Assembly (NCBI GenBank): GCA_025057015.1
Contig: JANWYG010000002.1
Coordinates: 21,523-85,522, forward strand
DNA length: 64,000 nucleotides
From: Blastocatellia bacterium
Lineage (GTDB): Bacteria > Acidobacteriota > Blastocatellia > Chloracidobacteriales > JADJPF01
Direction of reading: 5' to 3'
In this document: positions 34,464 through 64,000 of the stretch, piece by piece
Layout of the letters: the number at the start of each line of letters is the position of its first letter
Numbering within the stretch: position 1 is the first letter of the stretch
Program-made: the position numbers and the translations under genes
The notes under the pieces: generated by a model
Told to the model about the DNA's origin: nothing
The model's input: the letters and a program-made list of their open reading frames with translations, nothing else
Database searches by the model: none

Positions 34464-35122
34464 CGTCTTACTCCATTCAAAAAAAGGTCTATAAGCGGCC
34501 CACACGAGTCTACGAGTGGAGCCTCATCCTGAGACAGTATCCACTGTATCACCCTCTCTGCGAGGGCACCGTAGAGAGCTCTAGCCGCTATGCTTGGACT
34601 AATTTCTTCGCGGAAGCTGCCGCCAAGCTGGCCCTCTTTTACAGCAGCAACTATAAAGTCCAAAAACTCGTTTAGCTTAGTAGCAGAAAACTGCTCTATG
34701 AACTTAGGCTGACGAAGCTCAAAGTGAAAAACAACGGCAAGATTGCGGTCTTTGCCCATCAACCTCAGATAGAGTTTTGCAAGACGCTCAAGCTTCTGTG
34801 CGGGATCAGCCACTGCTTCTGTTTCTACCTTCGCTAAAGCAATAGCCTCATCTAAAGTGTAGTTGAAAATAGACGTCAAAAGCTCTTCTTTGTTCTTAAA
34901 ATAGAGATACACCGTGCCATCAGCTACGCCTGCCTCCCGTGCTACATCAGCTACCTTAGCGTTGAAAAACCCATTGCGAGCAAATACCCTGATCGCAGCA
35001 AGCAATATTGATTCATACTTATCCGGCGAAGGCCCGGCAGCCAACACCTCAGACAACGGCTTATTTAACGACGGCCTATTTACATCAGAAAGCGGCCTGT
35101 TTAACGACGGTCTGTTATTCAT
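34460..35122 (-). CDS. fadR: TetR family regulator of fatty-acid degradation (FadR type)
   Basis: The 220-residue protein has a TetR DNA-binding domain (residues about 36-85: ILLAAIRVFARNGFFNAKVADVAREAGVADGTVYLYFKNKEEL) and a helical ligand-binding domain. Its start carries an unusual tandem repeat of 12 residues, NRPSLNRPLSDV followed by NRPSLNKPLSEV, before the TetR domain. It heads the fadD-fadN-fadA-fadE operon and has an 18-bp palindrome of FadR type overlapping its own promoter. The inferred role is a repressor released by long-chain acyl-CoA that controls the whole operon, including itself. Confidence 0.88.
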   Translation of the reverse strand: MNNRPSLNRPLSDVNRPSLNKPLSEVLAAGPSPDKYESILLAAIRVFARNGFFNAKVADVAREAGVADGTVYLYFKNKEELLTSIFNYTLDEAIALAKVETEAVADPAQKLERLAKLYLRLMGKDRNLAVVFHFELRQPKFIEQFSATKLNEFLDFIVAAVKEGQLGGSFREEISPSIAARALYGALAERVIQWILSQDEAPLVDSCGPLIDLFLNGVRR

Positions 35123-42977: not shown

Positions 42978-45900
42978 ATGGGCAAAAACTACAACATAAT
43001 CGACTTAGTAGTAGCTAACACTCAAGTAGATAAGCACATCTACACTTTCTTAAAAGATGGGGAGCTGGCAACCGAGCAACTAGACTACGCTGGTTTGCTC
43101 ACCAAAAGTTGTGCTATAGCAGCCCTGCTACAAGCAAATGCCCGCCGCGGCGAGCGTGCTTTGTTACTCTATCCTCCAGGACTAGACTTCATCCCAGCCT
43201 TCTTCGGCTCAATATTCGCCGGTATACTGGCCGTTCCTGCTTACCCACCAGATCCACTGCGCATAAGTAGGACACTACCACGGCTACAAGCTATAGCAGA
43301 AGATGCCGAAGCTAGCCTTGTACTCACCACGTCGCCTATACTCTCGCTAGCAGAACACTTCACCGGTTCAGTTTCTTCGGCTGCAGAAAAAGGCTTAGAT
43401 CCCTTCTCCATGGCTCCAAAGCTCAAGCAGATGAAATGGTTAGCCACTGATAAGCTCGATCTACGCTCGGCTATCGACTGGAAACGTCCTCAAGTAAACC
43501 CAGACTCGATAGCTTTCTTGCAGTACACTTCAGGCTCGACCTCTACTCCTAAGGGCGTGATGGTAACACACGCCAATCTCATCACTAACGCCGAATACTA
43601 TAGGTACGGTTGGGGCCATGACTCTTCGTCAGTGACCGTCACCTGGATGCCCAACTTTCATGACTTGGGGCTGATGGACGCCGTAGTACAACCTGCCTTT
43701 TACGGGTTCCACTCGGTAGTAATGCCGCCTACGGCCCTGCTCAAGAATCCCTTGAGATGGCTATACGCAATTTCTAACTATAGAGCAACGTTTAGCTCCG
43801 CACCAAACTTCGCCTTCGAGCTATGTACCCGTAAGGCCACCGAGCAAGATATCTCGAAACTAGATCTCAGTTCGTGGCAAGCAGCACTTAACGCAGCTGA
43901 ACCTGTTCGCAAAGAGACGATGGAGAAATTCTATCAGATGTTCCGCCGCTGCGGTTTCCGATGGGAAACCTTCTCGCCAGGCTATGGCCTAGCAGAAGCC
44001 ACCCTTAAGGTCTCCGCTACCAATAGAGCCGATAGCCCGGTGTTCTGTTGCGTGGATATTGAAGCCCTTGAACAAAACCGCGTAGTAGAGACTACCTCCA
44101 ACACAGGCTCTCGTGATTACACTAGCTGCGGACGACCTATGGCAGAATTCGGTACGCACGTCCTTATAGTCGATCCCGAAACCTTAGAACCCTGCCCTCC
44201 AGATCGAGTTGGCGAGATTTGGGTCAGCGGCCCCGGTGTCGCACATGGCTACTGGAACAAACCAGAAGAGACTGAGCGCACTTTCAAAGCAAAGACTTCT
44301 ACCGGTGAAGGGCCGTTTTTACGCACCGGTGACTTAGGCTTTCTCCGCAACGGCGAGCTCTATGTCACAGGCAGATTGAAAGACTTGATCATAATAGATG
44401 GCCGTAATCATTATCCTCAGGACATAGAACTTTCCGCCGAAAAAGCACATCCTGCAATTAGACCCGGCTGCTCGGCTGCCTTCGCTTTGGAACTACCCGA
44501 CCAATCAGGAGCTTATAGAGAACATCTGGCCATAGTAGCTGAAGTCGATCTACAACGCGCAGGAAGCGCCCCTAGAGACCTCGAAGCAATAAGAAAAGCC
44601 ATACAACTAACCATAGCAGAACAACATGACCTAGACGTACTGCGAATAGATTTCATCAAGCCCGGCACAATTCCAAAGACATCATCTGGAAAAATTCAAC
44701 GTCGGGCCTGCCGTCAAGCTCTGCTCGAAGGAACCTTGGAATTTATAGAGCCTACACATCTAAGACAAGAGCCCGTATTAGATACTTCAAGCACCGAAGC
44801 ACCTGAAACTAAAGCAAGCAACGAGCAATTTAATTCCGTTCTCGACTGGTTGATAGCCAAGATAGCAGAACGTAAACAAATACCTCGTCACGAGGTAGCT
44901 ATAAATGCAACTTTTGCCGCATACGGAATGAAGTCAAGCGACGTAGTAGGGTTGGTTGGAGAACTAGAACAGTTCATCGGTAGGAACGTCGAGCCGAGCT
45001 TGTTTTACGCCTACCCTACCATAGAATCGCTATCAAAATACCTTGCAGAAAGCCATATCAAAGAACCAGGATCTTCCGTTTCATTAACCCAGAACAGATT
45101 TGCCAATAATCTAGACTCTCCTGTAGCGATTATAGGCATAGGGTGCAGATTTCCGGAAAACACAAACACAGCCGCTGATTTCTGGAAATTTCTCGCCGAA
45201 GGTCGCAATGCGATACGCAGCGTTCCTTCTGGCAGGTGGGACACTCTGCCGCAAAAACCGTACCTAGCAAGAGCCGGCTTTCTTGAAGATGTCTACAGTT
45301 TTGACCCAGCCGTCTTCGGCATCAGTCCCGTGGAAGCAGCACGTATGGATCCACAGCAACGGCTACTGCTTGAAACAAGTTGGGAAGCATTAGAAGACGC
45401 TGGTCTTGCACCGTCGCGCCTTTGTGGTCAGCAGGTAGGTGTCTTCATAGGCATAAGCACAGACGATTATGCTCGCTCACAGTTTGAGGCTTTTGACGTG
45501 CCCGACGCTTACGTAGCTACAGGTAGCGCCCTGTCGATGGCTGCTAACCGCATCTCCTACCTACTTGGCCTTCAGGGACCGAGTGTCTCTATAGACACTG
45601 CTTGCTCATCATCACTTACTGCACTACACTACGCCTGCCAAAGCCTTCGCACTGGTGAGTGCCGCCTTGCGCTGGTAGGTGGCGTAAATCTGATTCTGTC
45701 GCCAGCGCTATCAATCCATCTCGACCGTGCGGGCTTCCTCTCACCAGATGCTCAATGTAAGACGTTTGACGCTGCCGCTAATGGATACGTACGTGGCGAA
45801 GGCGCCGCAACAGTAGTCCTAAAAATGCTAGATCAAGCCCTACTAGACAATGACGATATCTATGCGGTAATTCGTGCCACAGCAATAAATCAGGATGGAC

Positions 45901-48900
45901 GTAGCAACGGGCTTACAGCTCCTAATCCACAAGCACAACAACAGGTCATACTAGAAGCCTGTAGTCGTGCGCGTATCGATCCCAACGAGCTAGACTACCT
46001 AGAAGCACACGGCACAGGAACAGCCCTAGGCGATCCGATAGAAGCAGCTTCAGCAGCCAAGATCTACTGCGGCGAACGCCGAGCCACAGATAGACCTCTT
46101 AGAATCGGTTCGGTCAAAGCCTCCATAGGCCACCTAGAAGCTGCCGCTGGAATAGCAGGACTTATCAAAGTAGCTCTAATGCTCAAAGCAAAGAAGTACA
46201 CTCCCAGCTTGAACTTTGAGCTACCTAATCCGCAGATCGACTTCGAAGCACTAAAACTGAAAGTACAGACCAAGTGCGAAAACTGGCCCGAACGAGGAAA
46301 ACTACGGCTGGCAGCAGTAAGCTCGTTTGGCTTCGGCGGTACTAACACACACGCTATCTTAGAAGAAGCTCCCAGCAAAACATATCGCCATACTTGCAAA
46401 GCTGACGAAGCTCTCTTTAATCTCTTGCCAATCTCGGCTTCAAGTCCAGCGGCTCTTAAAGCTCTTACCGCAAAATACCTAGAGCTCCTTGATGGATTAA
46501 GCGATGAGCAGATAGCCGAGGTTTGCGCCGCTGCAGCACACAAGCGGGATCACTTGAAATACAGGTTAGTAGCCACAGGTCGCAGCAAAAGTGAGCTATG
46601 TGATGGGCTGCAGGCATTCCTAGCTGACAAACCTCATCCTGCCCTAGAAACAGCAAAAACCTTACGCTCGCCAACCCAGGTAGCCTTTGTCTACACCGGT
46701 CAAGGGACTCAATGGTGGGCCATGGGATGCCAACTCTACCACAAATCCTCAGTATTCAGAAAAACCGTAGACAGGCTTGCAGCCATCATTAAAGCTCAGA
46801 CAGGTTGGGCAATTATAGAAGACTTCCTCGCCGCCGAAGTTTCAGCACGTGACAAAGATACAGCAATGCAACGTTTTCACTCGACAGAAGTAGCACAACC
46901 GCTGCTTTTTCTACTGCAAGCAGGTTTGACCAATCTGCTCAAGTACTATGGCGTACTGCCCGCCGTAGCTCTCGGACATAGTAGCGGCGAAATAGCCGCT
47001 GCTTGGGCTGCCGGTTGGTTGGACGACGAAGCGGCTTGCCTCATAGTTCAAAAGCGTGGGCAGATAATGCAACGTCAAAGTGGTAAAGGCAAAACAGCAG
47101 CAATAGAAGTCAGTCTACAAGAAGCAGAAAGCTACTTGCAGGGCCTAGATTTATCGATAGCTGCTGTAAACTCGCCTAGAGCACTTACCATTTCCGGTGA
47201 CGCTCAAGCTGTCACCGAAGCAGTTGAACGTTGCAAAGCGGCCGGCAAATTTGCCCGTATGCTTAAAGTAGACCATGCCTTCCATTCGTCTCAGATGGAC
47301 GTACTGCAAGAAGAACTCAGAGAACTTGGCAAAATAAGTTCACAGAGTCGTGGAAACGCTAGCACGAAGCTTATCTCTACAGTAACCGGTCGAGCGGCCG
47401 AAAGCAGCGATTATACAGGCGAGTACTGGTGGAAGAACTGTCGCTTTCGTGTAGAGTTTGCCAGCGCCATTACCGAAGCAGCTAAAACTGCAAACATATT
47501 CGTAGAGATCGGACCACATCCCGTCCTCTTAGGATATATACAGGACACTCTGGGTACAGAACATGCACTTGGAACGCTTAAGCGTAACTCAGACGAAGCG
47601 GAGGCCATATCAAAGTCGCTTGCTCGACTTGCTGTCTATGGACTAAGCATAGCTTGGGATAAGATTTATCCATCCGTACCAAATATAAAGCTTCCCTTTT
47701 ATCCTTGGCAGAGAGAAACCTACAGAGTAAGGTTTACCCCAGACTGCGTTATCTGCGCAGGCCAAATAAAAAGGACATATAAACGTAATAACCCTCAGCC
47801 AGTAAGCAAAGCTTCAGAGATAAACCAAGCTGCCGACAAGCTGTACGAGATCCGCTGGCAAAAAGTACCTTGGCCACAGCAAAAGACAAGAAAGACTGTT
47901 TATATAATTTCTGACGACACACAATTAGCACAATCACTAGCTGAGAAGCTAAAGGCAATGGGCTGTGACGCTCAGATCACAAACCGCTTGCCACAACAGC
48001 CTCAGATCGAGCTAGTATGGTTGCCGCAGAGACACCGCCCAGACGACGTGGAAACTGTGGCAGAAGACCTAACTACTAAGTTACTTGAAATAGCCAGATT
48101 TCAAGGCCGACTAACCATAGTCACTTTTGGGGCAGTAAGCTGTCTCGGAGAGCCCCCAGATCCGCTACAAGCATTGCTTTGGGGACTTGGGCGAAGCCTG
48201 GTAATAGAGCGGCAGGCACCAACATTTATGGTAGACCTCGGTTGGAACACCACATCGGCAGTCGAACTGCTAGCTAAGCATTTGGTCTATTCAGATAGAG
48301 AAGACGTCGTAGCGATACGGGAAACAAATAGATATGTAGCACGACTTGTAAGGCTATCTATAGCACAACACTCAGATACCCTGACCACACATGCTAGAGC
48401 CTCAGCTATAACTTCTGATGGTATATTTCGACCAGACAGAGCTTGTCTCATCACCGGTGGATTCGGAGGGCTTGGCCTACTTACCGCTGAGTGGTTGATT
48501 AGCCAAGGCGTCAGACACCTGATACTTGCAGGCCGAGTTAAATTACCGGCAAGAAGTAGCTGGCGTCTTGTAGACCCGAGTAGCGAGCAAGGCCGACGTA
48601 TAGCAGCGATACGACGGTTAGAGCAACTAGGAGCGTCTGTACTTAGCCCTGCATTAGATGTATCCGATGAGGCGGCTATGATCAAGTTTTTGCAAGAGTA
48701 TGACGCAGAAATGCGTCCCCCCATAGGCATCGTCTTTCATATAGCTGGCGAGGTGAAATATGCACAGCTTGAACAACTCGATCGTCAACTGTTGAGAGAG
48801 GTATTTCCTGCCAAAATTTCTGGCAGCTCGATACTTGACCGAGTATTTGATAAAGAAGTAAGGCTGTACTTATATAGCTCGCTGAGCTCAGTCATAGCAG

Positions 48901-49604
48901 AACCTGGCAGCGGGGCATATTCTGCTGCAAATGCGTTTTTAAATGCCCTAGCCGAGCGGCGCCGAGCACAGGGCAAACACGCGTTGAGCATCTGTTGGGG
49001 GCCGTGGGAAAGCGTCGGCATGGTAGAGCGCTCTCAGAGAAAAGAAGTCTACTTTGCACGAGGGCTGCGTAGCTTCCGAGCAGCAGAAGGTTTGTCAGTA
49101 CTTGACGCAGTTATCGAGAGAACTGGCAGCATAATAGCTGCCTCGATAGACTGGCCACGTTTCACACACATATACCCTCGGCTACCGCTACTAGAGCAAC
49201 TTGAAGTAGCTCAAGAGCCTGTGAACCTAGAGATACCTGCTTCAGACAATTGCGTTCACCACCTAAAGCAGTTTCTCAGCGATACTGTAACCGAACTTCT
49301 AGGCGCTAAAGTCGATGACAAAACCAACTTAGCTTCCTGCGGCGTAGATTCATTATTGGCGATAACGCTTAAGAACCGCATACGGTCGACCCTTATGGTA
49401 GATGTCCACGTAGGTAAGATATTGTCCGCCTCCATAGTAGAGCTCGCTGAAAACCTAGCACAATTGCTAGAGTTAGCAGCAAGTAAAGCGTCTACTGACA
49501 AACTAACCAAGCACGAAGCACAGGAGTTACTCTCACGGCTAGACGAGCTAAGCGACGAACAGGTAGAAGCTTTATTAGCAAAGCTTGCTGAAGGAGGTAT
49601 CTAG
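42978..49604 (+). CDS. Fatty acyl-AMP ligase-PKS hybrid (FAAL-ACP-KS-AT-KR-ACP)
   Basis: The start is taken as the ATG at 42978; a GTG at 42942 in the same frame is an alternative and neither has a strong ribosome binding site. The 2208-residue protein has these regions in order. A FAAL domain (about 1-590, with LQYTSGSTSTPKGVMVTHAN) comes first. An ACP follows (about 615-700, Ser653 in YGMKSS). A KS comes next (about 713-1130; Cys876 in DTACSSS; EAHGTGTALGDP; SIGHLEAAAG). An AT follows (about 1220-1520; Ser1335 in GHSSGE; HAFH at about 1433, the malonyl-type motif). Then comes a KR (about 1810-2010; TGGFGGLG; catalytic Tyr1981 in GAYSAAN) and a second ACP (Ser2125 in GVDSLLAI). The C-terminus has a charged docking-like helix (LDELSDEQVEALLAKL). 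No DH or ER is visible. It should adenylate a fatty acid, load it, extend once with malonate and reduce the ketone to hydroxyl. Confidence 0.93.
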   Translation: MGKNYNIIDLVVANTQVDKHIYTFLKDGELATEQLDYAGLLTKSCAIAALLQANARRGERALLLYPPGLDFIPAFFGSIFAGILAVPAYPPDPLRISRTLPRLQAIAEDAEASLVLTTSPILSLAEHFTGSVSSAAEKGLDPFSMAPKLKQMKWLATDKLDLRSAIDWKRPQVNPDSIAFLQYTSGSTSTPKGVMVTHANLITNAEYYRYGWGHDSSSVTVTWMPNFHDLGLMDAVVQPAFYGFHSVVMPPTALLKNPLRWLYAISNYRATFSSAPNFAFELCTRKATEQDISKLDLSSWQAALNAAEPVRKETMEKFYQMFRRCGFRWETFSPGYGLAEATLKVSATNRADSPVFCCVDIEALEQNRVVETTSNTGSRDYTSCGRPMAEFGTHVLIVDPETLEPCPPDRVGEIWVSGPGVAHGYWNKPEETERTFKAKTSTGEGPFLRTGDLGFLRNGELYVTGRLKDLIIIDGRNHYPQDIELSAEKAHPAIRPGCSAAFALELPDQSGAYREHLAIVAEVDLQRAGSAPRDLEAIRKAIQLTIAEQHDLDVLRIDFIKPGTIPKTSSGKIQRRACRQALLEGTLEFIEPTHLRQEPVLDTSSTEAPETKASNEQFNSVLDWLIAKIAERKQIPRHEVAINATFAAYGMKSSDVVGLVGELEQFIGRNVEPSLFYAYPTIESLSKYLAESHIKEPGSSVSLTQNRFANNLDSPVAIIGIGCRFPENTNTAADFWKFLAEGRNAIRSVPSGRWDTLPQKPYLARAGFLEDVYSFDPAVFGISPVEAARMDPQQRLLLETSWEALEDAGLAPSRLCGQQVGVFIGISTDDYARSQFEAFDVPDAYVATGSALSMAANRISYLLGLQGPSVSIDTACSSSLTALHYACQSLRTGECRLALVGGVNLILSPALSIHLDRAGFLSPDAQCKTFDAAANGYVRGEGAATVVLKMLDQALLDNDDIYAVIRATAINQDGRSNGLTAPNPQAQQQVILEACSRARIDPNELDYLEAHGTGTALGDPIEAASAAKIYCGERRATDRPLRIGSVKASIGHLEAAAGIAGLIKVALMLKAKKYTPSLNFELPNPQIDFEALKLKVQTKCENWPERGKLRLAAVSSFGFGGTNTHAILEEAPSKTYRHTCKADEALFNLLPISASSPAALKALTAKYLELLDGLSDEQIAEVCAAAAHKRDHLKYRLVATGRSKSELCDGLQAFLADKPHPALETAKTLRSPTQVAFVYTGQGTQWWAMGCQLYHKSSVFRKTVDRLAAIIKAQTGWAIIEDFLAAEVSARDKDTAMQRFHSTEVAQPLLFLLQAGLTNLLKYYGVLPAVALGHSSGEIAAAWAAGWLDDEAACLIVQKRGQIMQRQSGKGKTAAIEVSLQEAESYLQGLDLSIAAVNSPRALTISGDAQAVTEAVERCKAAGKFARMLKVDHAFHSSQMDVLQEELRELGKISSQSRGNASTKLISTVTGRAAESSDYTGEYWWKNCRFRVEFASAITEAAKTANIFVEIGPHPVLLGYIQDTLGTEHALGTLKRNSDEAEAISKSLARLAVYGLSIAWDKIYPSVPNIKLPFYPWQRETYRVRFTPDCVICAGQIKRTYKRNNPQPVSKASEINQAADKLYEIRWQKVPWPQQKTRKTVYIISDDTQLAQSLAEKLKAMGCDAQITNRLPQQPQIELVWLPQRHRPDDVETVAEDLTTKLLEIARFQGRLTIVTFGAVSCLGEPPDPLQALLWGLGRSLVIERQAPTFMVDLGWNTTSAVELLAKHLVYSDREDVVAIRETNRYVARLVRLSIAQHSDTLTTHARASAITSDGIFRPDRACLITGGFGGLGLLTAEWLISQGVRHLILAGRVKLPARSSWRLVDPSSEQGRRIAAIRRLEQLGASVLSPALDVSDEAAMIKFLQEYDAEMRPPIGIVFHIAGEVKYAQLEQLDRQLLREVFPAKISGSSILDRVFDKEVRLYLYSSLSSVIAEPGSGAYSAANAFLNALAERRRAQGKHALSICWGPWESVGMVERSQRKEVYFARGLRSFRAAEGLSVLDAVIERTGSIIAASIDWPRFTHIYPRLPLLEQLEVAQEPVNLEIPASDNCVHHLKQFLSDTVTELLGAKVDDKTNLASCGVDSLLAITLKNRIRSTLMVDVHVGKILSASIVELAENLAQLLELAASKASTDKLTKHEAQELLSRLDELSDEQVEALLAKLAEGGI

Positions 49605-49605
49605 C

Positions 49606-55600: not shown

Positions 55601-58551
55601 TGCCAGCCTATATGATACCGCAAATAGTGCTACTAAAGCACATGCCCGTAACAGCAAGCGGTAAGATCGACTACAAAGCGCTACCGCCCATCGAGATATC
55701 AGCTAAGACCGAAGACAAATTAACAACTCCTTCAGAGCGTGCCCTTGCTGAAGTGTGGAAAGAGGTTCTGAAGGTAGACAAGGTAGAGCTTACAGACAAT
55801 TTCTTCTCAATCGGGGGAGATTCGATTCTGAGCATACAACTTGTTTCAAAAGCTGCTCAGAAAGGAATACAGATCACACTAAAGCAGATCTTTCAATTTC
55901 AGACGTTAAAAGATTTAGCAGCAGTGGCCGTACTGATGCGAACTTTCGAGGAGGAGTTTGTAGCAGAAGGCGAGGTACCGTTGCTTCCCATACAGAAATG
56001 GTTCTTCCAACAAGAGTTAACGCAGCCTAACAAGTACTGTCAAAGCATCTTATTCAAGGCCAGAGAGCAGCTAATCGCTCAAGCAGTGAGAGCTTCGCTA
56101 CTGCGACTGGTACGGCATCATGATGCTCTGCGCTCGCGTTTTTACCGTGATGAGGGTGGCAGCTGGCACCAAAAGATCACGCCTGAAGAAAACTTCTATT
56201 TTGAGCACCACGAGGTAACCGAGCTGAACTCTGAAGACTTGGCAAAACGAGTCGAGCGGTTGTACTCCAAGATAGACATTGCAGCAGGCCCGCTAGTTGC
56301 GGCAGCTTTGCTGAGCACTTTTAGCCACTCATTCTTAGCTTTGGTAATTCATCATCTGGTAGTAGATGCTGTTTCTTGGCGCATCCTGTCTGAAGACTTC
56401 GAGACAGCTTATACAGAAGAACTGACCGGCAAAGGAGCAGGCAGTCTGTTACCTAAGACCGCCTCTTTGAAAGAGTTCTCGCTACGAGTTTATGAAAATG
56501 CCAAACATTTGAGCTCCGAGTTAGAGTATTGGCTAGTACAGCCATGGCATTTAGCTGCAAAGCTAGACCGAGACGGTGATGGAGAAAACTTAGAAGCTCT
56601 CGCCGATGAGGTACAAGTTAAGTTAGGTCGCGAAGCCACGAATCTGCTGCTACGCAGATTGCCATTAGAGCAAAGCGTAAGACCGATGGAAGTAATTCTT
56701 GCAGCGCTCTATCTAGCCCTAGTGCAAGCAACAGGCAAGGATATAATACGGCTAGACTTAGAGTGGCACGGCCGCAAGGAAATCGACGGACTGAATCTGA
56801 GTAGGACTGTAGGCTGGTTTACTTGCATCTATCCAGTACTACTGGCAAGAACTAAAGCAGAATGTCCAGTAACGGCGATAAAGGAGCAGCTACGACGCGT
56901 ACCACAAAACGGTTTCGGATATGGGGTGCTTCGATATCTTACCGAAGAAGGTTACAAGCTAGAGGAAATTCCGCCTGCGGAAGTATGCTTTAACTACTTC
57001 GGCAGGCTGGACTTAGAAAGTAATGAGTTACTATACCCAATAGAACTGTTCTCCTCTAGCGGCTCGAATCGCAGAGCATATCTGATAGACATTAACTGTT
57101 GGATAAAGAACGACGAGCTAGAACTGGTCTACACCTACAGTCAAGCTGTATATAACCGCAGCCGCATAGAGCGGTTAGCCGAAAGCACTATAGAGCAGTT
57201 GCGAGCTTTGATTTATGAAAGCCTCGGTCTGGAAACAGCAGACGATACCTTAGCAGAAGTCAACCGAGAGAAGCCGACCAGTCTGTTAAAGAGCCGTCCG
57301 GAAATACTTGAAGCAACACCAATACTACCTACTCAGGCAGAGATGCTAAAGCATTTCGCCCCGCCAGTATATCTTTTGCAGATCAGATGGGAGATAGTCG
57401 GTAAGCTAAATAGCAAGGCCTTCTATCAAGCTTGGTACAAAGTACTTGCAAAAGCACAGATGCTACAGACAATGTTTACCACTGTAGGTGGCGTGGGGCT
57501 ACGACTCGTGTCAGCGGTTAAAGAGCCACGGTGGAGAGAGTACGATTTGACAGCAGCCGATGACCCCGTTGGTACCATACTAAGCCTGAGCGAAGAAGAT
57601 AAGCGAGATTTTGATTTGGAACAGCTTCCGCTGTGTAGGTTTTCGTTATTCAAGTTGGCTGAAGATAGGCAAGAGCTATCGTGGACATTCCCTCATCTGT
57701 TGATGGACGGCTGGAGCACGTCGATAGTGCTTGCAGAAGTATGCCGCGTGTATGAATCGATAGTTAACAAGCAGCTTCCGCCTCCACTTAGGATGAAGTT
57801 GCCGCATGAGCTTTTCTCATTTTACAGAAATCGAGCTTGCGACGAAACTTTCTGGGCTGAAGAGCTTCGAGGACATGATGAAGCCTTCGACTTAAGAGGG
57901 AATGCCGTCGGCGGCTCTGGCTACGGCAGTTTGATTGAGTCATTCAGCAAAGAAGAGACTGAAGTTTTAGAGCATCTTGCAAAGTCACATAAGACGACAC
58001 TTGGTATAATAGTACAAGCGGCTTGGGCACTAACGCTTGCGGCTTACAGCAATAGAGACCAGGTTATCTTTGGGCTGACATTTTCGGGCAGAACTCCAAC
58101 CATAGCTGGCATAGAGTCAATGGTGGGGTTACTTATTAACACTTTGCCGGTACACATTCGACTTAACATAAACGCGTCGCTTGAATCCATCTTTGAGCAG
58201 ATAAGGGACAAGCAATCAAAACTCGTGCAGCATGAGCACTCTTTTATAGCCCCAGCCACTTTCTCGAGCGTGCTACGCTTCCAAAACTACCCTAAATATT
58301 TTCTTTTGCAAGCAAAGGATAGCAGTTTAAAATTGCGGGAGATCGACTGCTCAGACATTTGGCATTATCCGTTCAGCTTGAGCATCACGCCCGGAAAAGA
58401 GCTATTGCTCTGGGTAACTTACAGTCGAGGAAGTTTTGAAGACCGATGCGTACGGAAAATACTTGATCTCTTCAAGAAAATCTTAAAGATATCTTCTTCT
58501 AACAGCAAAATGACCGTATCTGCTTTGCTAGAACAGCTCAGAGTACCATGA
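49606..58551 (+). CDS. NRPS, C-A-PCP-C-A-PCP-E-C
   Basis: The start is the GTG at 49606, with AAGGAGG 8 bases before it; a TTG-led frame from 49585 would begin inside the PKS gene. The 2981-residue protein has eight domains. C1 has HHIATD at residues 156-161. A1 has YTSGSTGRPKG near 643. PCP1 has Ser1036 in LGGHSLLA. C2 has HHIVCDG at 1219-1225. A2 has YTSGSTGKPKG near 1681. PCP2 has Ser2073 in IGGDSIL, the form typical before epimerisation domains. E has HHLVVDAVSW at 2249 and a later FNYFGRL near 2463. The final condensation domain has PHLLMDGWS at 2696-2704. There is no thioesterase. It would condense the PKS-derived acyl chain with two amino acids, epimerise the second and release the product through the terminal C domain. 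Confidence 0.92.
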   Translation: MDESINRADKRALLRRLLQERLTSAKTTTYELSPGQRALWFIHKLSPRQAAYNVNVAIRFCEKVNRQALERALETLLLRHAILRTVYTEIEGRPAQRVLDKPAELQYRDCSSMDEKALKDAVEAEAYRPFNLEVEAPLRAIIFKHDSGDVFLLSIHHIATDLLSTAIILDELRTLYAKEYALSEGNKEIAKTLLLKELPYDYFDYIEACKAFSIDEKLSSYWKQQLSGRLPNLYLPTDKPRPKQPTYQGSEFKFRLDGLRPQLTRFARKYRCTVYVVLLAVYKALLYRYTGQEDLLVGSPFAGRLDERFTDCVGYFVNPVVIRTQPRGDRLFTDLLDEVRSRVLEALEHQNYPFALLVEQLQPYRLPASSPIFQASFVFDSLQGHRRELLALTTEGGRIDFGPTPARGYELGERSTQFDLSLIVVDTGEGLSASFKYSSDLFNRDTIERLAGHYKNLLEAVLVEPQRRLAELPLLSEKEFHTLVYRWNETSRDYPTDVCIHRLFEQQAEKTPDQVAVRYDDTSITYAELDRLASKLAARLYRLGARRGHPIAICLDRSIEMVAAILAVLKVGACYVPIDPQYPKQRKSLMLSDCQAEHLITCKSLLEDPPTAATPIYIDEETQEETYEGKVFPASADDICYILYTSGSTGRPKGVMVAHRALCNHMYWIVETFGINSTDKILQKTPFSFDASVWEFFAPLITGGTLVMAKPLGHQDPDYLLDIIEREKISILQVVPSQLEMLLASDRVEQMRRLRHLFCGGEALSTNLALKVKKLLPFTLLTNLYGPTEATIDSTYHTFDTSRSYGKTIPIGRPISNLRAYILDYEKRPVPIGVKGELYVAGAGVAGGYYRQEQLTAESFVCDPFFPGQKMYRTGDLARYLPDGNIEYLGRLDSQVKIRGHRLELGEIELAIAEDSSVEAVAVVDYKFGEEDHRLVAFVQAKPDFDEAILLSKLRTKLPEQMLPARFVRLNQLPLLPNGKIDRRALPKVAPTGSSNCEFTAPRTQTESILADIWREVLQVDKISVHESFFRLGGHSLLAMQVVARIRDRLNMDLPLIQLFELDTIAKLAEALESKPKVEMQKIESLQTAQAPLSYAQQRMWFFYRFDPESPAYNIPAAFRIRGHLDRPALEKALELLAENQPTLTTVFIEADGQVFQRVENRSIPFSFVDLSHSLLSEAELAEVIRREGLTPFNLQESSMRVKLLKVAAHEYLLMITLHHIVCDGWSFEILLEELDRYYRACFDNRTPEVIKPQVNYIDFTLWQRKQLDSGAFKHQAEYWRKQLHDLQVLDLPTDRPRRPSTSISGGVVKRFLSAKLKRQLQELNRQAGATLFMSLLTAFYALLYRYGCQQDIAIGTPIAGRNRYETERLIGLFVNTLVLRVQVSGSESFHELLRKVRETALAAYDNQDLPFEKLAEMLSPERSGIQSTLFQVMFAVREAPRKQRSLGELALEEVSVDYGVAKFDLTLEVEELSDGLCCRFEYNSELFDQTTLERLAVHYERLLTELCIAPSKPIAELAMLSAEEIAQLMSWSTEETVLASTGVLERFENQVKLWPDAIAIETSRGERLSYERLDRQANSIARKINEQRAGRRVAVCAERSPQLIAALLGIWKSGRSYVPIDPDYPQERINYILRNAEVDTVCLQPHLVTQLPNLRTILLESKEELEAPIKQFDGEEAYLIYTSGSTGKPKGVAVSHKALALHIDAVIRRYGLSQSDKQLFFSSPSFDVSLEQFLPALTCGACVYIRGKELWSPEDFLTNVRQARLSHVDLPTAYWHQLAEALAKTYTPLPECLKLVTCGGEAMSALHVQLWQQLVTNDKVRLLNAYGPTEAVITATVYEFIEDINIQRPVPIGRPFGKRRIYVLDKDLNLLPAGVPGELYIGGEVLAEGYVNLKEETAKSFLTNPFVPGERLYKTADRVRYRSDGNLEFLGRLDEQVKIRGFRIEPQEIEHCLIEHPKVSQVAVVLRDDNQQKKLVAYITSNEEISASELTKFLKHRLPAYMIPQIVLLKHMPVTASGKIDYKALPPIEISAKTEDKLTTPSERALAEVWKEVLKVDKVELTDNFFSIGGDSILSIQLVSKAAQKGIQITLKQIFQFQTLKDLAAVAVLMRTFEEEFVAEGEVPLLPIQKWFFQQELTQPNKYCQSILFKAREQLIAQAVRASLLRLVRHHDALRSRFYRDEGGSWHQKITPEENFYFEHHEVTELNSEDLAKRVERLYSKIDIAAGPLVAAALLSTFSHSFLALVIHHLVVDAVSWRILSEDFETAYTEELTGKGAGSLLPKTASLKEFSLRVYENAKHLSSELEYWLVQPWHLAAKLDRDGDGENLEALADEVQVKLGREATNLLLRRLPLEQSVRPMEVILAALYLALVQATGKDIIRLDLEWHGRKEIDGLNLSRTVGWFTCIYPVLLARTKAECPVTAIKEQLRRVPQNGFGYGVLRYLTEEGYKLEEIPPAEVCFNYFGRLDLESNELLYPIELFSSSGSNRRAYLIDINCWIKNDELELVYTYSQAVYNRSRIERLAESTIEQLRALIYESLGLETADDTLAEVNREKPTSLLKSRPEILEATPILPTQAEMLKHFAPPVYLLQIRWEIVGKLNSKAFYQAWYKVLAKAQMLQTMFTTVGGVGLRLVSAVKEPRWREYDLTAADDPVGTILSLSEEDKRDFDLEQLPLCRFSLFKLAEDRQELSWTFPHLLMDGWSTSIVLAEVCRVYESIVNKQLPPPLRMKLPHELFSFYRNRACDETFWAEELRGHDEAFDLRGNAVGGSGYGSLIESFSKEETEVLEHLAKSHKTTLGIIVQAAWALTLAAYSNRDQVIFGLTFSGRTPTIAGIESMVGLLINTLPVHIRLNINASLESIFEQIRDKQSKLVQHEHSFIAPATFSSVLRFQNYPKYFLLQAKDSSLKLREIDCSDIWHYPFSLSITPGKELLLWVTYSRGSFEDRCVRKILDLFKKILKISSSNSKMTVSALLEQLRVP

Positions 58552-58565
58552 TAGAGTACCATGAT
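58540..58565 (+). repeat. Two tandem copies of AGAGTACCATGAT at the NRPS/receptor junction
   Basis: The 13-base unit occurs at 58540-58552 and again at 58553-58565. The first copy contains the NRPS stop codon; the second contains the receptor ATG at 58561. A tandem duplication therefore shapes the end of one gene and the start of the next. Confidence 0.9.
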
Positions 58566-61527
58566 GATGAGGAATGTAATCTTTTTTCTACTGCTCTTTA
58601 CATATCTTGCGTATGCCCAGAGTGGGTCGACAACTGGAGCTATACTAGGCACAGTAAAAGATGGACAAGGAGCAATACTCGCCGGCGCTACAGTAGTGGC
58701 TCGTCAGGTAGAAACTAACCAGGAGAGAACACTAACCGTAGGAGAAGACGGGCGCTTTCAGTTTTTACAGTTGCCACCCGGCACCTACGAGGTAAGGGCC
58801 GAAGTAGAAGGATTTCAGACCCAAAAAGACCTGCTAAGTCTCAACATCGGCATCACTGCGCTTATAGACTTCGTGCTACTACCGATAGGTGTGACTGAAG
58901 TAGTAGAAGTAGAAGCAAAAGTTTCTGAGCAGAAGACTGAAAGTAGCAGCCTAAACGGCAGTGACAGAATAGACAATTTACCTATAAACCGCAGAAACTT
59001 CTTGGATTTTGCTACCACTGCTGCTCGTGTAGTACTCGATCGATTGCCGGTACAAGGCGTAGCAGCTACTTCGGGACTTTCTTTTAATGCACAATCAAGC
59101 AGGCAGAATAACATCACGATAGATGGACTTGATAATAATGACACTAATGTAGGCACTGTAAGGTCCACCTTCAGCCAAGAAGCAGTACGGGAATTTCAAG
59201 TAGTTTCCGACGGTTACTCGGCAGAGTTTGGTCGTGCGCTTGGTGGTATAGTCAATATAGTCACTAAAGGCGGAACTAACGACGTACACGGTACAAGCTT
59301 TCTGTTTCTTCGTAATGACGCAATCAGCGCGCGAAATGCCTTTTCTAAGATCAATCCAGAATACGAACAATACCAGTTTGGGATGACGATAGGAGGTCCC
59401 ATACGCAAAGACAAGCTGTTTTACTTCACTTCTTTTGAACGCTTATCGGTCAAGCAAAACAACGTAGTGACGATACCTGACAATATAGTCGCCTCGATAC
59501 GACGTCTAGGTTTCAAAGACATAGATAACGGGCCGCAACCCTTTGCCCTAGGCAACACCACGTTTCTAGGCAGAATAGACGCACAGATAAATCCTTCGGA
59601 CTCTCTGACAATTAGGTACAATTTTGGAGGGACATTTGATGGCAACTTTGAGCCCTTTGGCGGCCTGACAGCTCGCAGCGCTAGTGGCTTCCAACGCCTG
59701 ATAGATGATCAGTTGGCAATTTCAAACACTTACCTTGGCAGCAATTTTATCAATGAAACGAGGTTCTTATACGGCTATCGCGATCAGAAAGTACTTTCTG
59801 ACTATCCAGGGCCGCTTGTCAGAATAGAAGATGGACAAATAGGTCGAATAGTCTTTGGCAAAGCGCTTTCTACTAACCAACCTAGGAAGATAGATATTCT
59901 TCAGATAGTAAACAATGTATCGACAGTAGCCGGGCCGCATCAGCTAAAGTTCGGGGTAGACTTTCTATATCTCACAGCGAGAAATCGACTGCCAAATCGC
60001 GAACAAGGCGGGGCAACGTTTGCAGATCTTGACCTGAGATTTCTAGGTTTACCGGGAGATGGTTTCTTTACAGCGATACAAACTTTTGATCCATCGCTAC
60101 GGTCACCTGCACAAAAGCGGTTCTTAACAGCTTTAGCATCATTATTGCCGAGATTTGCTCAGATACCGAACTTCCCCGGAAATTTACCGCTTGCAGACCT
60201 TCCGATACCCAGCAGCTACGGACAAGGTTTCTTCCCAAAAGAGCTGCTCGAGGTATCACAGAAGTTTTTCTCACTGTTTATCCAAGACGACTATAAAGTC
60301 ACGGAGCACCTTCTAGTGAAACTAGGTTTACGTTACGACCTATTCCGCACGGACTTTTATCCCAAGAACAAAGGTAACTTCAGCCCCCGTATCGCTATAT
60401 CCTATAACCCACCAAAGCTACAGCGTTTCTCCTTCTATCTTACCTATGGCTTCTTTTACGCCGTACCGAACTTAGGGCCGATATTTACGGTCTTTCCCGA
60501 ACCGAGATATATACCTTTTATGCTATTGCCAGAAACTATACTTGCATTTAACCAGCCTGGTAGGAGCTTTCCGGTCTCTGACACAATACCCCAAGAAGTA
60601 GGGTTTGTCAGGCAATATGCCCTAGAAGCCCAGATACAACCAGATCTCCATACAAGCTATACACAACAACTAGGACTAGGATTTAACTACTTCTTCAATC
60701 GGAATACCGTACTGAACGTGTCATATAACTTTGTACGAGGAATCAGACTGTTCGGTCTACGAGATGTAAATCCAGTCGTCCGACCAGGTGCCACAGTGAT
60801 GGAAAGCTTAATCAAAGGCCGAATTGATCCAACAAGAGGCTCTGTAACAGAGTTTGGTACTACCTATGACAGCTACTTTCACGGCTTCACGCTGTCACTC
60901 AACCGCCGACTGTCAAATCGCATAGGCGTTCAAGCAAATTACACTCTTTCGAAAGCTATAGACAACACGTTTGACTTCGTAGGCTCAGTACAGGAAATAG
61001 AGAACGTATTCAATCTGCGTAGCGAGCGTGCTTTGTCAGTACAAGACTTACGCCACAGATTCGTAATGTCCGGAACTTGGGACATAGGCTATCACAAACT
61101 CCTCAAGAACTTTATGCTCTCAGGTATCGTGAACATTAACTCAGGCAGGCCGTACAATCTGGTTGCAGGAGTAGATCTTAACCGCAATGATATACCGTTT
61201 GACAGACCTCTTGAAAAAGGGCCTGACGGCGTTCTAAGACCTCTCGGACGAAATGCCGGCATCTCGCCAGGGTTTTCCAACGTCGACTTAAGGCTTGCAA
61301 GAACCCTCAACATCTCGGAAAAATACAAATTGTCACTCTACACTGAAGCATTCAACCTGCTTAACCACGTCAATATAGACCAGTTCAGCCGTCTCTATCC
61401 GAGAGACACAAACGGCAATTTTAACTTGCCACCAAAGCGGGGACGCTATTATACAGTTCCCCCAGATAGATATCGCAGTGCTTTCTCGCCGCGATTATTC
61501 CAATTCGGCGTACGTCTCAGCTTCTAA
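58561..61527 (+). CDS. Oar-like TonB-dependent receptor with carboxypeptidase regulatory domain
   Basis: The 988-residue protein has a signal peptide (residues 1-19, ending AYAQ) and a carboxypeptidase-regulatory-like beta domain (about 25-105, with LGTVKDGQGAILAGATV and PPGTYEVRAEVEGFQ). A plug domain follows (about 120-240, with ITIDGLDNNDTN and ALGGIVNIVTKGGTN). A C-terminal barrel of about 700 residues ends in aromatic Phe (GVRLSF). This is the Oar/acidobacterial type of outer-membrane receptor. It begins 9 bases after the NRPS stop, has no clear ribosome binding site and has three adjacent ATGs. Its position in the cluster suggests import of the product, its metal complex or a related compound. 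Confidence 0.9.
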   Translation: MMMRNVIFFLLLFTYLAYAQSGSTTGAILGTVKDGQGAILAGATVVARQVETNQERTLTVGEDGRFQFLQLPPGTYEVRAEVEGFQTQKDLLSLNIGITALIDFVLLPIGVTEVVEVEAKVSEQKTESSSLNGSDRIDNLPINRRNFLDFATTAARVVLDRLPVQGVAATSGLSFNAQSSRQNNITIDGLDNNDTNVGTVRSTFSQEAVREFQVVSDGYSAEFGRALGGIVNIVTKGGTNDVHGTSFLFLRNDAISARNAFSKINPEYEQYQFGMTIGGPIRKDKLFYFTSFERLSVKQNNVVTIPDNIVASIRRLGFKDIDNGPQPFALGNTTFLGRIDAQINPSDSLTIRYNFGGTFDGNFEPFGGLTARSASGFQRLIDDQLAISNTYLGSNFINETRFLYGYRDQKVLSDYPGPLVRIEDGQIGRIVFGKALSTNQPRKIDILQIVNNVSTVAGPHQLKFGVDFLYLTARNRLPNREQGGATFADLDLRFLGLPGDGFFTAIQTFDPSLRSPAQKRFLTALASLLPRFAQIPNFPGNLPLADLPIPSSYGQGFFPKELLEVSQKFFSLFIQDDYKVTEHLLVKLGLRYDLFRTDFYPKNKGNFSPRIAISYNPPKLQRFSFYLTYGFFYAVPNLGPIFTVFPEPRYIPFMLLPETILAFNQPGRSFPVSDTIPQEVGFVRQYALEAQIQPDLHTSYTQQLGLGFNYFFNRNTVLNVSYNFVRGIRLFGLRDVNPVVRPGATVMESLIKGRIDPTRGSVTEFGTTYDSYFHGFTLSLNRRLSNRIGVQANYTLSKAIDNTFDFVGSVQEIENVFNLRSERALSVQDLRHRFVMSGTWDIGYHKLLKNFMLSGIVNINSGRPYNLVAGVDLNRNDIPFDRPLEKGPDGVLRPLGRNAGISPGFSNVDLRLARTLNISEKYKLSLYTEAFNLLNHVNIDQFSRLYPRDTNGNFNLPPKRGRYYTVPPDRYRSAFSPRLFQFGVRLSF

Positions 61528-61539
61528 AGGCTGCTTAGC

Positions 61540-63030
61540 TTGACCACGAAACTATTTCTGGAAGATCTACAGGAAGAACTGCTCAGCCACTCCGATCCAA
61601 AGCGGTGGTACGGACTAATAGTACTATTAGCTAGCACCTTTATTGTCACCCTCGACGGATTCATAATCTATTTGGCTCTCCCTGCAATCAAGCTGCAGTT
61701 GCACGCCAGTCCGGCTCAGATGCAGCTCTTGCTTGCGTCATTTCAGATAACTAATGCCGCACTACTTATTATAGGTGGCAAGATAGGTGACCTTTATGGC
61801 CGGAGAAAACTCTTTAGCATAGGGCTTATAGGATACGCTTGTACGGTCCTTTGCTGCGGCTTCTCAAGAAGTGCAAACCTACTCATAGCACTTAATGCCC
61901 TGCAGGGAATAGCAGTAGCAATGCTTTCTCCTCAAACAGTATCCATCATCCGACTAAATTTCAGCCTTAAAGAAAGAACATATGCCTTTGGCCTCTACAA
62001 CGCAATCACGGGAGCAGGAGCAATAGTAGGCCTACTTGCCGGTGGAGTAGTAGTAGAGAAACTGGGCTGGCGCGCAGCTTTCCTCATAACTCCACCGATA
62101 GCGGTGACAGCATTCATAGCCGCTTTTCTTCTATTAAAAGAGTCCCGTTCCGGTACACGCTCTCGACAGATCGACCTTCCCGGAGCTGGCTTACTAACCG
62201 CAAGCCTCTCGATACTCATAGGTTCGGCCATCATAGGTAGAGAAAAAAACTGGCCGCCGGAAGCCTTAGCCTTCCTTAGCCTGGCTTCGGTACTCTTGCT
62301 TCTGTTCCTAGCATACGAAAAGAAACGCACGAGCCTCAAAGCATCCCCTCTGGTACATTATGCCCTACTTTCAGATAGAAGTTTCCTAGCTGGTATAGTA
62401 GCAGCTATGGTGTACAACACCACACAGAGCTCCTTCTACTTTGTCTTTACTCTCTATCTTCAGTTCGGCCTTCAACTCTCCCCAAAAGTAGTAGGAATGA
62501 TACTAGTGCCCATGGCAGTGGGATTCATATTTGCCTCGATGTTTAGTGCCAAGATTCCCAACAAATTTGAGCGCGAGGCAGTAGGCTTCGGAGTGTTACT
62601 TACCGTCTCAGCCCTCCTAACACTACTGATTATGCTAAATAAAGATGCCAGTAAAACCCAGATCGCCATGGTAACCATGGCACAAGGAATAGGTCTAGGC
62701 ATAGCAAGTACGCCGATGTACTCGTTGATACTCTCCCGCGTGATAAGTAACTACGCGGGCGTAGCTGCCGGAATGCTTAATACCGTCCAGCAAATAGGCA
62801 GCGCCCTCGGAATAGCCTTTGTCGGCATAGTCTTCTTTGGTATCTTAAGCAAAATGGAAGCTAGCGGTGAACTGAACAAAATAGCCTACTCAAGGTCATT
62901 TTCCGCAGCTATACTCTGTCACATAATCGCCTGTTCCATAGTACTGCTGATATTGCCTCTGCTGAGACACCCAAAAACTACCCCTACCGAACCAACTGAA
63001 ATTAACAAACAAACAGGACCACTCAGATGA
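61540..63030 (+). CDS. MFS transporter, DHA2 family
   Basis: The frame starts at a TTG with AAAGG 10 bases upstream. No closer ATG suits the first helix, because the next one lies well inside the helix bundle. The 496-residue protein has about 14 predicted membrane helices, in keeping with the DHA2 group. The MFS motif GGKIGDLYGRRK lies between helices 2 and 3. It is inferred to export the product of the adjacent NRPS-PKS enzymes. It overlaps the PPTase gene by 4 bases (ATGA). Confidence 0.88.
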   Translation: MTTKLFLEDLQEELLSHSDPKRWYGLIVLLASTFIVTLDGFIIYLALPAIKLQLHASPAQMQLLLASFQITNAALLIIGGKIGDLYGRRKLFSIGLIGYACTVLCCGFSRSANLLIALNALQGIAVAMLSPQTVSIIRLNFSLKERTYAFGLYNAITGAGAIVGLLAGGVVVEKLGWRAAFLITPPIAVTAFIAAFLLLKESRSGTRSRQIDLPGAGLLTASLSILIGSAIIGREKNWPPEALAFLSLASVLLLLFLAYEKKRTSLKASPLVHYALLSDRSFLAGIVAAMVYNTTQSSFYFVFTLYLQFGLQLSPKVVGMILVPMAVGFIFASMFSAKIPNKFEREAVGFGVLLTVSALLTLLIMLNKDASKTQIAMVTMAQGIGLGIASTPMYSLILSRVISNYAGVAAGMLNTVQQIGSALGIAFVGIVFFGILSKMEASGELNKIAYSRSFSAAILCHIIACSIVLLILPLLRHPKTTPTEPTEINKQTGPLR

Positions 63031-63716
63031 GCTTGCCAGAAGATGGAGTAGTAGAAATATCCATCTACGAAATACCTTCAATACTCTCTGCACATCCAAT
63101 AGAACTCCTTTCTGAAGAAGAACGCCACAGAGCAGACAGGTTTAGGTTCGAAAGTGACCGATGCCGCTTTATAGCATCACACATAGCACTCCGACTAAAG
63201 CTCGCCGAGTATCTTGACATCAACCCGAAGGAAATAACCTTTCACTATGGCCCCTACGGTAAGCCCTACATCCACAGCTCGACTCTCCGCTTTAACCTCT
63301 CACACTCAGCCGCGATAGTAGCTATGGCGTTTGCAAATTCTGTCGAAGTTGGCATTGACGCAGAATCCTTACTTCGCAAAGTTTCAGACCGTGACGCACT
63401 CGCTCGCCGCTTCTTCACCAGCGAAGAGTACGCCTCTTACCTAGAGGCCACCGATCATACCCTCGCCTTCTTTCGCATCTGGACACGCAAAGAGGCATTC
63501 ATTAAGTGCACCGGTGAAGGCCTGCACCGCACATTATCTAGCTTCATCGTCAACGTAGATCCACAACCTAGACTGCTATCCGTAGACGGTTCTGCAAGTA
63601 AAGCCAGAAGGTTTACCATGCACGAAGTTATCGTACAGAACCACTTGGTTAGCTCTATAGCAATGTCATCTCAAGCAAAGTTTCGCACAAATTTTCGCTT
63701 GCAGCCTTTCATGTAA
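63027..63716 (+). CDS. 4'-phosphopantetheinyl transferase, Sfp type
   Basis: The 229-residue protein has the two Sfp/AcpT signatures: VGIDAES near residue 110 and WTRKEAFIKCTGEGL near residue 152. It transfers the phosphopantetheine arm of CoA to carrier proteins. It should activate the two ACPs and two PCPs of the adjacent megaenzymes. Its start overlaps the transporter stop, so it is translated with the cluster. Confidence 0.92.
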   Translation: MSLPEDGVVEISIYEIPSILSAHPIELLSEEERHRADRFRFESDRCRFIASHIALRLKLAEYLDINPKEITFHYGPYGKPYIHSSTLRFNLSHSAAIVAMAFANSVEVGIDAESLLRKVSDRDALARRFFTSEEYASYLEATDHTLAFFRIWTRKEAFIKCTGEGLHRTLSSFIVNVDPQPRLLSVDGSASKARRFTMHEVIVQNHLVSSIAMSSQAKFRTNFRLQPFM

Positions 63717-63759: not shown

Positions 63760-64000
63760 ATGTATTCGCCACTTCTAAGGCCGCGTTTGCTCCCGTTAGC
63801 ACTTATGGTTTTGGCAAGTCTTATAACCTTCTTGCCCTCTATAACTCCAAAAGGAAGTGCCTCAAACAGAGCAAGCATACAACAAGCAGATAAACTAGAC
63901 CGCTTAAGAGAGCTTTACCGGGATCTGCAAGCAGGAGCACCCTTCTCTGATATAGAAGCAGAAATACTGCGACGCTTCGCTTCAGGTGAAGAAATAGCAG
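63760..64000 (+). CDS. Membrane-anchored or secreted protein (partial, 3' end outside window)
   Basis: The frame opens at an ATG with TAGGAGA 6 bases upstream and continues to the end of the window (80 codons). The N-terminus is basic and then hydrophobic (LPLALMVLASLITFLPS), and the following sequence is charged and helical. No family is recognised from this fragment. A separate promoter (63699-63727) suggests it is not strictly part of the lipopeptide operon. Confidence 0.65.
   Translation, partial: MYSPLLRPRLLPLALMVLASLITFLPSITPKGSASNRASIQQADKLDRLRELYRDLQAGAPFSDIEAEILRRFASGEEIA

What the first reader, a model, noticed from the sequence alone, without database searches (positions are those of the whole stretch)
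42978..63716. Compact FAAL-PKS-NRPS lipopeptide locus with receptor, exporter and Sfp enzyme
Five consecutive plus-strand genes form a self-contained pathway: FAAL-ACP-KS-AT-KR-ACP, then C-A-PCP-C-A-PCP-E-C, an Oar-like TonB receptor, a DHA2 exporter and a Sfp-type activator. The predicted core product is a 3-hydroxyacyl dipeptide. I do not recall a characterised acidobacterial product with this module order. The order and domain motifs are seen; the product structure is inferred.
Basis: partly seen in the sequence, partly recalled or inferred. Interest (0 to 1): 0.85.

Follow-up and report, generated by a model that had tools for sequence, protein, structure and literature searches.

The report
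Lipopeptide assembly line without thioesterase
This stretch of an acidobacterium-like genome holds five adjacent intact genes for an enzyme assembly line predicted to join a fatty acid to two amino acids, with a likely exporter, an outer-membrane receptor and a carrier-activating enzyme; the assembly line has no thioesterase domain and ends in a condensation domain that would release the product, and four of the five genes keep the same order in a distant relative.

Summary
Observation confirmed, interpretation partly supported. Five intact + strand genes (42978-63716) encode FAAL-ACP-KS-AT-KR-ACP, C-A-PCP-C-A-PCP-E-C, a TonB-type receptor, an MFS exporter and a Sfp-type PPTase. Three corrections. 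(1) The window ends at the contig end, 284 bp after the PPTase, so this contig cannot show that the locus is self-contained. (2) A genome of another family in the same order (G012) carries the same four genes in the same order inside a 168 kb contig, followed by apparently unrelated genes, with no PPTase or further NRPS gene nearby. Equal contig lengths suggest that PKS and NRPS are paired in two more sources. The core is thus four genes and the line ends in a condensation domain. (3) The PPTase is the only PF01648 match in its genome, so probably a general enzyme. Likely product: 3-hydroxyacyl-Gln-D-(perhaps basic residue); G012 has other codes. The terminal C domains of the five synthetases compared form one clade inside the main DCL group and carry PHxxxDG for HHxxxDG, which recalls fungal release domains. 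The own and G012 receptors belong to one clade, found in the searched whole genomes only beside these synthetases. New variant of a known kind; chemistry untested.

The parts
42978..49604 (+). Hybrid loading/PKS gene: FAAL (about 43020-44747), ACP1 (44844-45044), KS (45117-46607), AT (46686-47642), KR (48444-49010), ACP2 (49281-49469)
   Evidence: the frame also offers a GTG 36 bp upstream (42942)
49606..58551 (+). NRPS gene: C1 (49684-51054), A1 (51115-52584), PCP1 (52633-52821), C2 (52873-54192), A2 (54307-55665), PCP2 (55741-55923), E (55966-57222), terminal C (57310-58536); no thioesterase domain
57310..58536 (+). Terminal C domain with PHLLMDGW in place of HHxxxDG; proposed release domain
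58561..61527 (+).
61540..63030 (+). MFS transporter, best-fitting NCBIfam models are drug-efflux ones (EmrB/DHA2 kind, below their cut-offs), 496 aa
   Evidence: 41% identical to the gene in the same place in G012
63027..63716 (+). Sfp/HetI-type 4'-phosphopantetheinyl transferase, 229 aa; only PF01648 match in the genome
   Evidence: no match to it in 60 kb around the G012 locus
63760..64000 (+). Start of a further ORF with a signal-peptide-like N-terminus (by eye), cut off by the contig end; relation to the locus unknown

Best explanation
The locus encodes a FAAL-PKS-NRPS assembly line that is predicted to make a 3-hydroxyacyl dipeptide and would release it through the condensation domain at its C-terminus, since it has no thioesterase domain, with a likely exporter and an outer-membrane receptor encoded next to it. 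Steps, all inferred from the domains: the FAAL adenylates a fatty acid and loads ACP1; KS and a malonyl-type AT add two carbons; KR leaves a 3-hydroxyl; C1 joins the acyl chain to residue 1 (code DAWQFGLIDK, Gln); C2 adds residue 2 (code DVEDTGAITK, substrate unknown, perhaps basic); E turns residue 2 to D; the terminal C domain, derived from DCL domains, frees the chain by attack of the 3-hydroxyl, of an outside amine or of water. The MFS protein would carry the product across the inner membrane; the receptor, co-inherited with the synthetase in the searched genomes, would bind the product or a product complex at the cell surface. Shown: gene order, intact frames, domain order, motifs, conservation, no PF00975 thioesterase and no other A-PCP acceptor found in the assembly. 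Inferred: substrates, stereochemistry, release mode, transport roles.
For: Domains and motifs. The FAAL part matches in PDB a chain named polyketide synthase (7r7e, E 8.8e-151) and, among the next, chains named long-chain-fatty-acid--AMP ligase FadD32 and FadD23. Same order PKS-NRPS-receptor-MFS in G012 inside a 167,633 bp contig; the six nearest minus-strand ORFs of 200 aa or more after the MFS look unrelated by eye, and tblastn with the five proteins over 60 kb finds no PPTase and no NRPS domain outside the locus. Own genome (completeness estimate 97.25%): all 4 condensation matches lie in this protein, PF00975 thioesterase 0 matches, PP-binding 6 matches, of which 2 outside the locus: a 95-codon frame (AcpP-sized) and a reductase-AMP ligase-ACP-acyltransferase protein. 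The 5 terminal C domains of the family form one clade (support 0.966) inside a group of 204 domains that holds 144 of the 198 DCL domains (support 0.893). The A1 code equals a tabulated Gln code (PMC2866473, passage read).
Against: The contig ends after the PPTase, so a further gene could exist in this genome on unassembled DNA. Only PF00975 was searched; other hydrolase families were not, neither here nor in G012. A docking partner in trans is not strictly excluded. None of the 120 listed receptor homologs has the contig length of P0067, P0070 or P0052 (only each cluster's longest contig is shown), so the receptor may be absent there; no PKS with P0070's contig length was listed. The A2 code was not found in the paper library, and the codes were read by motif anchors, not by alignment to a structure. 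A different family (P0018 group, GHILMDG) has also lost the first His of a C domain at its end but the two tails shown are acidic and could be docking peptides, so the substitution need not mean release.
Confidence: 0.7

Rival explanations
1. The NRPS is one subunit of a longer line: the terminal C domain hands the chain to an A-PCP(-TE) protein encoded beyond the contig end or elsewhere.
For: C domains normally act between two carrier proteins; contig C6 ends 284 bp after the PPTase; of 121 NRPS proteins typed, 27 have a C domain as last domain called, 5 of them this family, and several of the other 22 may be subunits or partial.
Against: In G012 the locus lies within 168 kb and no other NRPS domain was found in 60 kb around it; no further A-PCP protein or condensation domain in the own assembly; no more than about 14 residues follow the matched terminal C domain in own and G012, too few for a docking domain.
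Confidence: 0.15
2. The product is a siderophore: the TonB receptor next to an NRPS and exporter brings back a metal complex.
For: Receptor-NRPS-exporter neighbourhood; receptor clade found beside the synthetase in 2 of 2 whole genomes that have it.
Against: I recognised no hydroxamate, catechol or other chelator gene among the neighbouring ORFs by eye (no dedicated search was run); the receptor belongs to a barrel family with about 16 frames in the own genome and matches FepA-type models only weakly.
Confidence: 0.1
3. An ordinary FAAL-PKS-NRPS cluster beside an unrelated receptor, exporter and housekeeping PPTase: proximity without joint function.
For: Relatives of the FAAL-PKS occur in 6 of 14 genomes of the order, own included; the PPTase is the genome's only PF01648 match and was not found near the G012 locus; P0247, 83% identical to the receptor, was listed without a synthetase of similar closeness.
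Against: Receptor and MFS keep order and orientation in G012 although the synthetases are only 36-42% identical; the receptor is 65% identical between the two loci while the other receptors listed for the class are at most 51%.
Confidence: 0.12

Closest known systems
Puwainaphycin and laxaphycin type FAAL-PKS-NRPS lipopeptide clusters of cyanobacteria (PMC4219810, PMC7524897: search listings and abstract starts only; details of their products recalled)
   Same: FAAL start, a PKS part, then NRPS modules acylating the first amino acid
   Different: those make larger cyclic peptides (recalled); here only two amino acids and no thioesterase domain, with a receptor and exporter gene beside them
Fungal terminal condensation domains CT and CT-DCL, e.g. 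TqaA, IvoA, HC-toxin synthetase (PMC11546977 section 3.5 read; PMC10212144 passages read)
   Same: C-type domain ends the NRPS, in some cases after E, in place of a thioesterase; loss of the first His of HHxxxDG in fungal CT domains is recalled, the passage read gives SHXXXD for an atypical fungal LCL type
   Different: bacterial, branches among bacterial DCL domains, Pro at the first position; PMC10212144 states that CT and CT-DCL types exist only in fungi
Rhabdopeptide-type terminal C domain Kj12C (PMC6195595, passages read)
   Same: bacterial C domain that ends the line and passes the chain to a free amine
   Different: Kj12C is a stand-alone C domain after Val and N-methyl-Val modules; here the domain is fused behind E and the acceptor is unknown
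Oar-like TonB-dependent receptors of Acidobacteriota
   Same: carboxypeptidase regulatory domain plus OMP_b-brl_4 barrel
   Different: own clade with G012 and four proteins of unknown context, support 1.0, found beside the synthetase in own and G012

Membership tests
FAAL-initiated PKS-NRPS lipopeptide synthetase | FAAL followed by ACP at the start, then KS-AT | tested here: met
   Pfam order; chains named FadD32 and FadD23 AMP ligases among the best PDB matches; FAAL models PRK05850 425 bits, FadD32 409 bits, both below their curated cut-offs
FAAL-initiated PKS-NRPS lipopeptide synthetase | NRPS modules downstream with intact active sites | tested here: met
   C1 lacks the Gly of HHxxxDG, the terminal C the first His
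FAAL-initiated PKS-NRPS lipopeptide synthetase | a lipopeptide is made | not testable with these tools
   needs expression and mass spectrometry
[quoted passage not shown]
   G012: no thioesterase domain in PKS or NRPS, no NRPS domain elsewhere in 60 kb, next ORFs unrelated by eye; own genome. Limits: own contig end; hydrolase families other than PF00975 not searched
Terminal release C domain (CT-like) | fungal CT or CT-DCL sequence type | tested here: inconclusive
   groups among DCL domains of the listed homologs, but no fungal CT domain was in the tree; fungal TqaA is a weak PDB match, E 2.5e-6, against 1.1e-39 for McyB
Terminal release C domain (CT-like) | blocked acceptor channel and release activity | not tested
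DCL condensation domain | follows an E domain and groups with DCL | tested here: met
DCL condensation domain | HHxxxDG motif | tested here: not met
   PHLL(M/V)DG in 5 of 5 family members; first His kept in 197 of 198 DCL domains
Siderophore cluster | chelator-forming gene or residue | tested here: inconclusive
   none recognised by eye among neighbouring ORFs here or in G012; no dedicated search; A2 residue unknown
Sfp-type PPTase dedicated to the cluster | conserved with the cluster and additional to a housekeeping PPTase | tested here: not met
   no match in 60 kb around the G012 locus; only PF01648 match in the own genome

The most novel reading that the evidence does not exclude
A bacterial invention of terminal release by a condensation domain, parallel to fungal E-CT endings: a DCL domain that lost the first His of its catalytic motif closes a 3-hydroxyacyl dipeptide on its own 3-hydroxyl to a ten-membered lipodepsipeptide ring, and a private receptor that travels with the synthetase takes the compound, or something bound to it, back in. 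Because the two lineages have different residue codes but keep the 3-hydroxyl, the terminal C domain and the receptor, the ring would be the constant and the peptide the variable part.
Probability: 0.15. Interest if true: 0.75.

Novelty: new variant of a known kind. Interest (0 to 1): 0.45.

Why it matters
It names a small conserved lipopeptide system in a poorly studied lineage, small enough (two synthetase genes) to express whole, and offers a bacterial test case for release by a terminal condensation domain. The receptor that travels with it gives a handle on what the many receptors of this kind in such genomes recognise.

Tried and rejected
A scan of viral contigs found nothing matching the PKS patterns. 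The named genome scan with the PKS found 17 loci of 22-48% identity (best segment), none examined further. Terminal C searches: 27 of 162 class genomes match at E 1e-25, own included, best 35% outside the own genome; 1 of 396 phylum genomes (the own one) at 1e-60, a threshold that also misses G012, whose domain scores 3.9e-46. The idea that the C15 ACP protein is the missing acceptor was dropped: it is a reductase-AMP ligase-ACP-acyltransferase protein. A foreign origin is not suggested by G+C: 0.45-0.50 in the locus, 0.44-0.50 elsewhere in the window. The count of first-His losses (10 of 16 E-terminal C domains against 1 of 198 DCL) comes from two families of five, so the Fisher value computed is not a fair probability and is not used. 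In the C-domain tree C domains under 380 residues and the duplicate P0003 were left out; 384 C and 3 E domains were kept. Six terms sought in a FAAL review (PMC11837247) gave no passage. Paper searches served only to find the release-domain papers cited. A structure prediction of the terminal C domain was considered and not run. MIBiG, antiSMASH and BiG-SCAPE are not available here.

Full report
What is there. The five genes are real, intact and in the stated order. The first frame has AMP-binding (FAAL), PP-binding, KS, AT, KR and a second PP-binding domain; the second has four condensation-type, two AMP-binding and two PP-binding domains; then come a carboxypeptidase-regulatory/OMP_b-brl_4 receptor, an MFS protein and a PPTase. 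The order of the NRPS domains is C-A-T-C-A-T-E-C. Genes are 1, 9, 12 and -4 bp apart, which fits one transcript. A gene for a DnaC/IstB-like ATPase ends 58 bp upstream on the same strand.

The limit of the window. G000 contig C6 is 85,522 bp and the window is its last 64,000 bp. The sequence stops 284 bp after the PPTase, inside another + strand ORF with a signal-peptide-like start (by eye). So the locus cannot be called self-contained from this contig. Genome-wide, all four condensation matches are in this NRPS, no PF00975 thioesterase is found (other hydrolase families were not searched), and the two PP-binding matches outside the locus are an AcpP-sized frame and a 1457 aa reductase-AMP ligase-ACP-acyltransferase protein.

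The relative that bears on the end. Fourteen genomes of the order, own included, were searched with the PKS; 6 match at E 1e-100 or better. In one, G012 (another family, 8.4 Mb; its PKS is identical to P0180, a protein named from an 'Acidobacteria bacterium' MAG), the minus strand of a 167,633 bp contig carries PKS (2294 aa, 42% identical), NRPS (3108 aa, 36%), receptor (65%) and MFS (41%) in the same order. Pfam gives the same domains for PKS and NRPS, with no thioesterase domain. The six nearest minus-strand ORFs of 200 aa or more after the MFS were translated and named by eye: a nucleotidyltransferase-like protein, an ABC1-type kinase, a serine acetyltransferase, an M48-type peptidase, enolase and an FtsY-like protein. 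tblastn with the five window proteins over 60 kb found no PPTase (E 1e-8) and no NRPS domain outside the locus. So the core is four genes and the NRPS appears to end in a C domain by design.

Wider family. The NRPS has full-length relatives P0052, P0067 and P0070, 53% identical with the same domain order. The PKS has P0124 to P0127, 58-59% identical in the alignment. P0126 and P0067 share the contig length 48,883, P0127 and P0052 share 19,384, which by inference places both genes on one contig in two more sources; no PKS with P0070's contig length (37,693) was among the 120 listed. None of the 120 listed receptor homologs has one of these contig lengths, so the receptor may not go with the synthetase everywhere, or the contigs end before it, or a longer contig in the same protein cluster hides it.

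The receptor. In 162 class genomes 15, own included, have a receptor at E 1e-200; the G012 one is 65% identical, the others listed at most 51%. In 396 phylum genomes only own and G012 pass 1e-295. In a tree of 121 receptors own, G012 and P0247-P0250 form a clade with support 1.0. P0247 is 83% identical, but no synthetase of similar closeness was listed, so it may come from a source without the cluster or not assembled. The own genome has matches to this barrel family in about 16 frames.

Predicted chemistry. FAAL: the best PDB matches are chains named polyketide synthase (7r7e and kin), then Saframycin Mx1 synthetase B, acyl-CoA synthase and the AMP ligases FadD32 and FadD23. AT has an xAFH motif in all six PKS sequences, the malonyl type (rule recalled). 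KR keeps its nucleotide motif, Lys, Ser, Tyr and Asn; there is no LDD motif in the own protein, and Pfam finds no DH or ER. This leaves a 3-hydroxyacyl chain. A1 reads DAWQFGLIDK in own, P0052 and P0067, tabulated as Gln in PMC2866473 (passage read). A2 reads DVEDTGAITK or DVEDTGAVTK; six codes of this kind were not found in the paper library; a basic residue is my inference from the acidic pocket letters. In G012 the codes are DTEDFGGVTK and DVWHISLVDK, the latter recalled as a Ser code. So the codes differ between lineages while domain order and ending stay.

The terminal C domain. In a tree of 384 C domains the own C2 groups with LCL, C1 branches deep beside LCL and start domains, and the five terminal domains form one clade (0.966) inside a group of 204 that holds 144 of 198 DCL domains and all 16 E-terminal ones (0.893). 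The active-site motif is PHLLMDG (PHLLVDG in G012); the first His is kept in 197 of 198 DCL domains and lost in 10 of 16 C domains that end a protein after E, five of them this family, five one other family with acidic tails in the two shown. Of 14 class loci compared besides the own one, G012 has PH and the other 13 keep the first His (the loci were the capped best matches). Reviews describe terminal C domains that cyclise or hydrolyse in fungi (PMC11546977, section 3.5 read), E+CT-DCL endings and CT types stated to exist only in fungi (PMC10212144, passages read; its SHXXXD motif is given there for an atypical fungal LCL type, and the same loss in CT domains is recalled), and a bacterial stand-alone terminal C domain using free amines (PMC6195595, passages read). 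I therefore think release by the terminal C domain most likely; which nucleophile is open. The 3-hydroxyl is the only inside nucleophile I see common to both lineages; hydrolysis or an outside amine are equally allowed by the data.

The PPTase. It keeps the family motifs (by eye) but is the only PF01648 match in the genome and was not found near the G012 locus, so it probably activates the fatty-acid ACP too. It should not be counted as part of the conserved cluster.

Verdict. Real, intact, conserved, and a new variant of a well-known kind. Paper searches (listings and abstract starts) showed no acidobacterial product of this build that I could recognise, but MIBiG could not be searched.

Noticed in passing
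G000 contig C15, L083:4116-8489: 1457 aa protein with reductase (NAD_binding_4), AMP-binding, ACP and acyltransferase domains; long frames in G001 and G002 gave similar hits; looks like an ether-lipid or wax type enzyme (name recalled: ElbD-like).
   Followed up: partly
whole genome G000: Only one PPTase match (PF01648) in a genome estimated 97% complete that also has an AcpP-sized PP-binding protein; a single Sfp-type enzyme may serve both pathways.
   Followed up: partly
window 5320-6853: ExbB/TolQ-like and TonB-like genes (by eye from translation) in the same window, a possible energy supply for the receptor.
   Followed up: no
window 11860-16886 and 27185-35122: Two sets of acyl-CoA degradation genes (enoyl-CoA hydratases, 3-hydroxyacyl-CoA dehydrogenases, thiolase, acyl-CoA dehydrogenase, acyl-CoA ligase, TetR-like regulator; by eye).
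   Followed up: no
L080 (G002 contig C661) 9-13016: In a same-family genome a receptor 44% identical lies divergently beside a KS protein and a FAAL-PKS fragment, so receptors near FAAL-PKS genes may be a wider theme.
   Followed up: no
P0018, P0019, P0025, P0028, P0033: A separate NRPS family, C-A-T-E-C-A-T-C-A-T-E-C, ends in a C domain with GHILMDG; the tails of P0018 and P0028 are acidic.
   Followed up: partly
G004, G009, G010: Same-order genomes of 3.7 Mb in 2 contigs resemble Chloracidobacterium (recalled), which suggests the order of the window; not tested.
   Followed up: no
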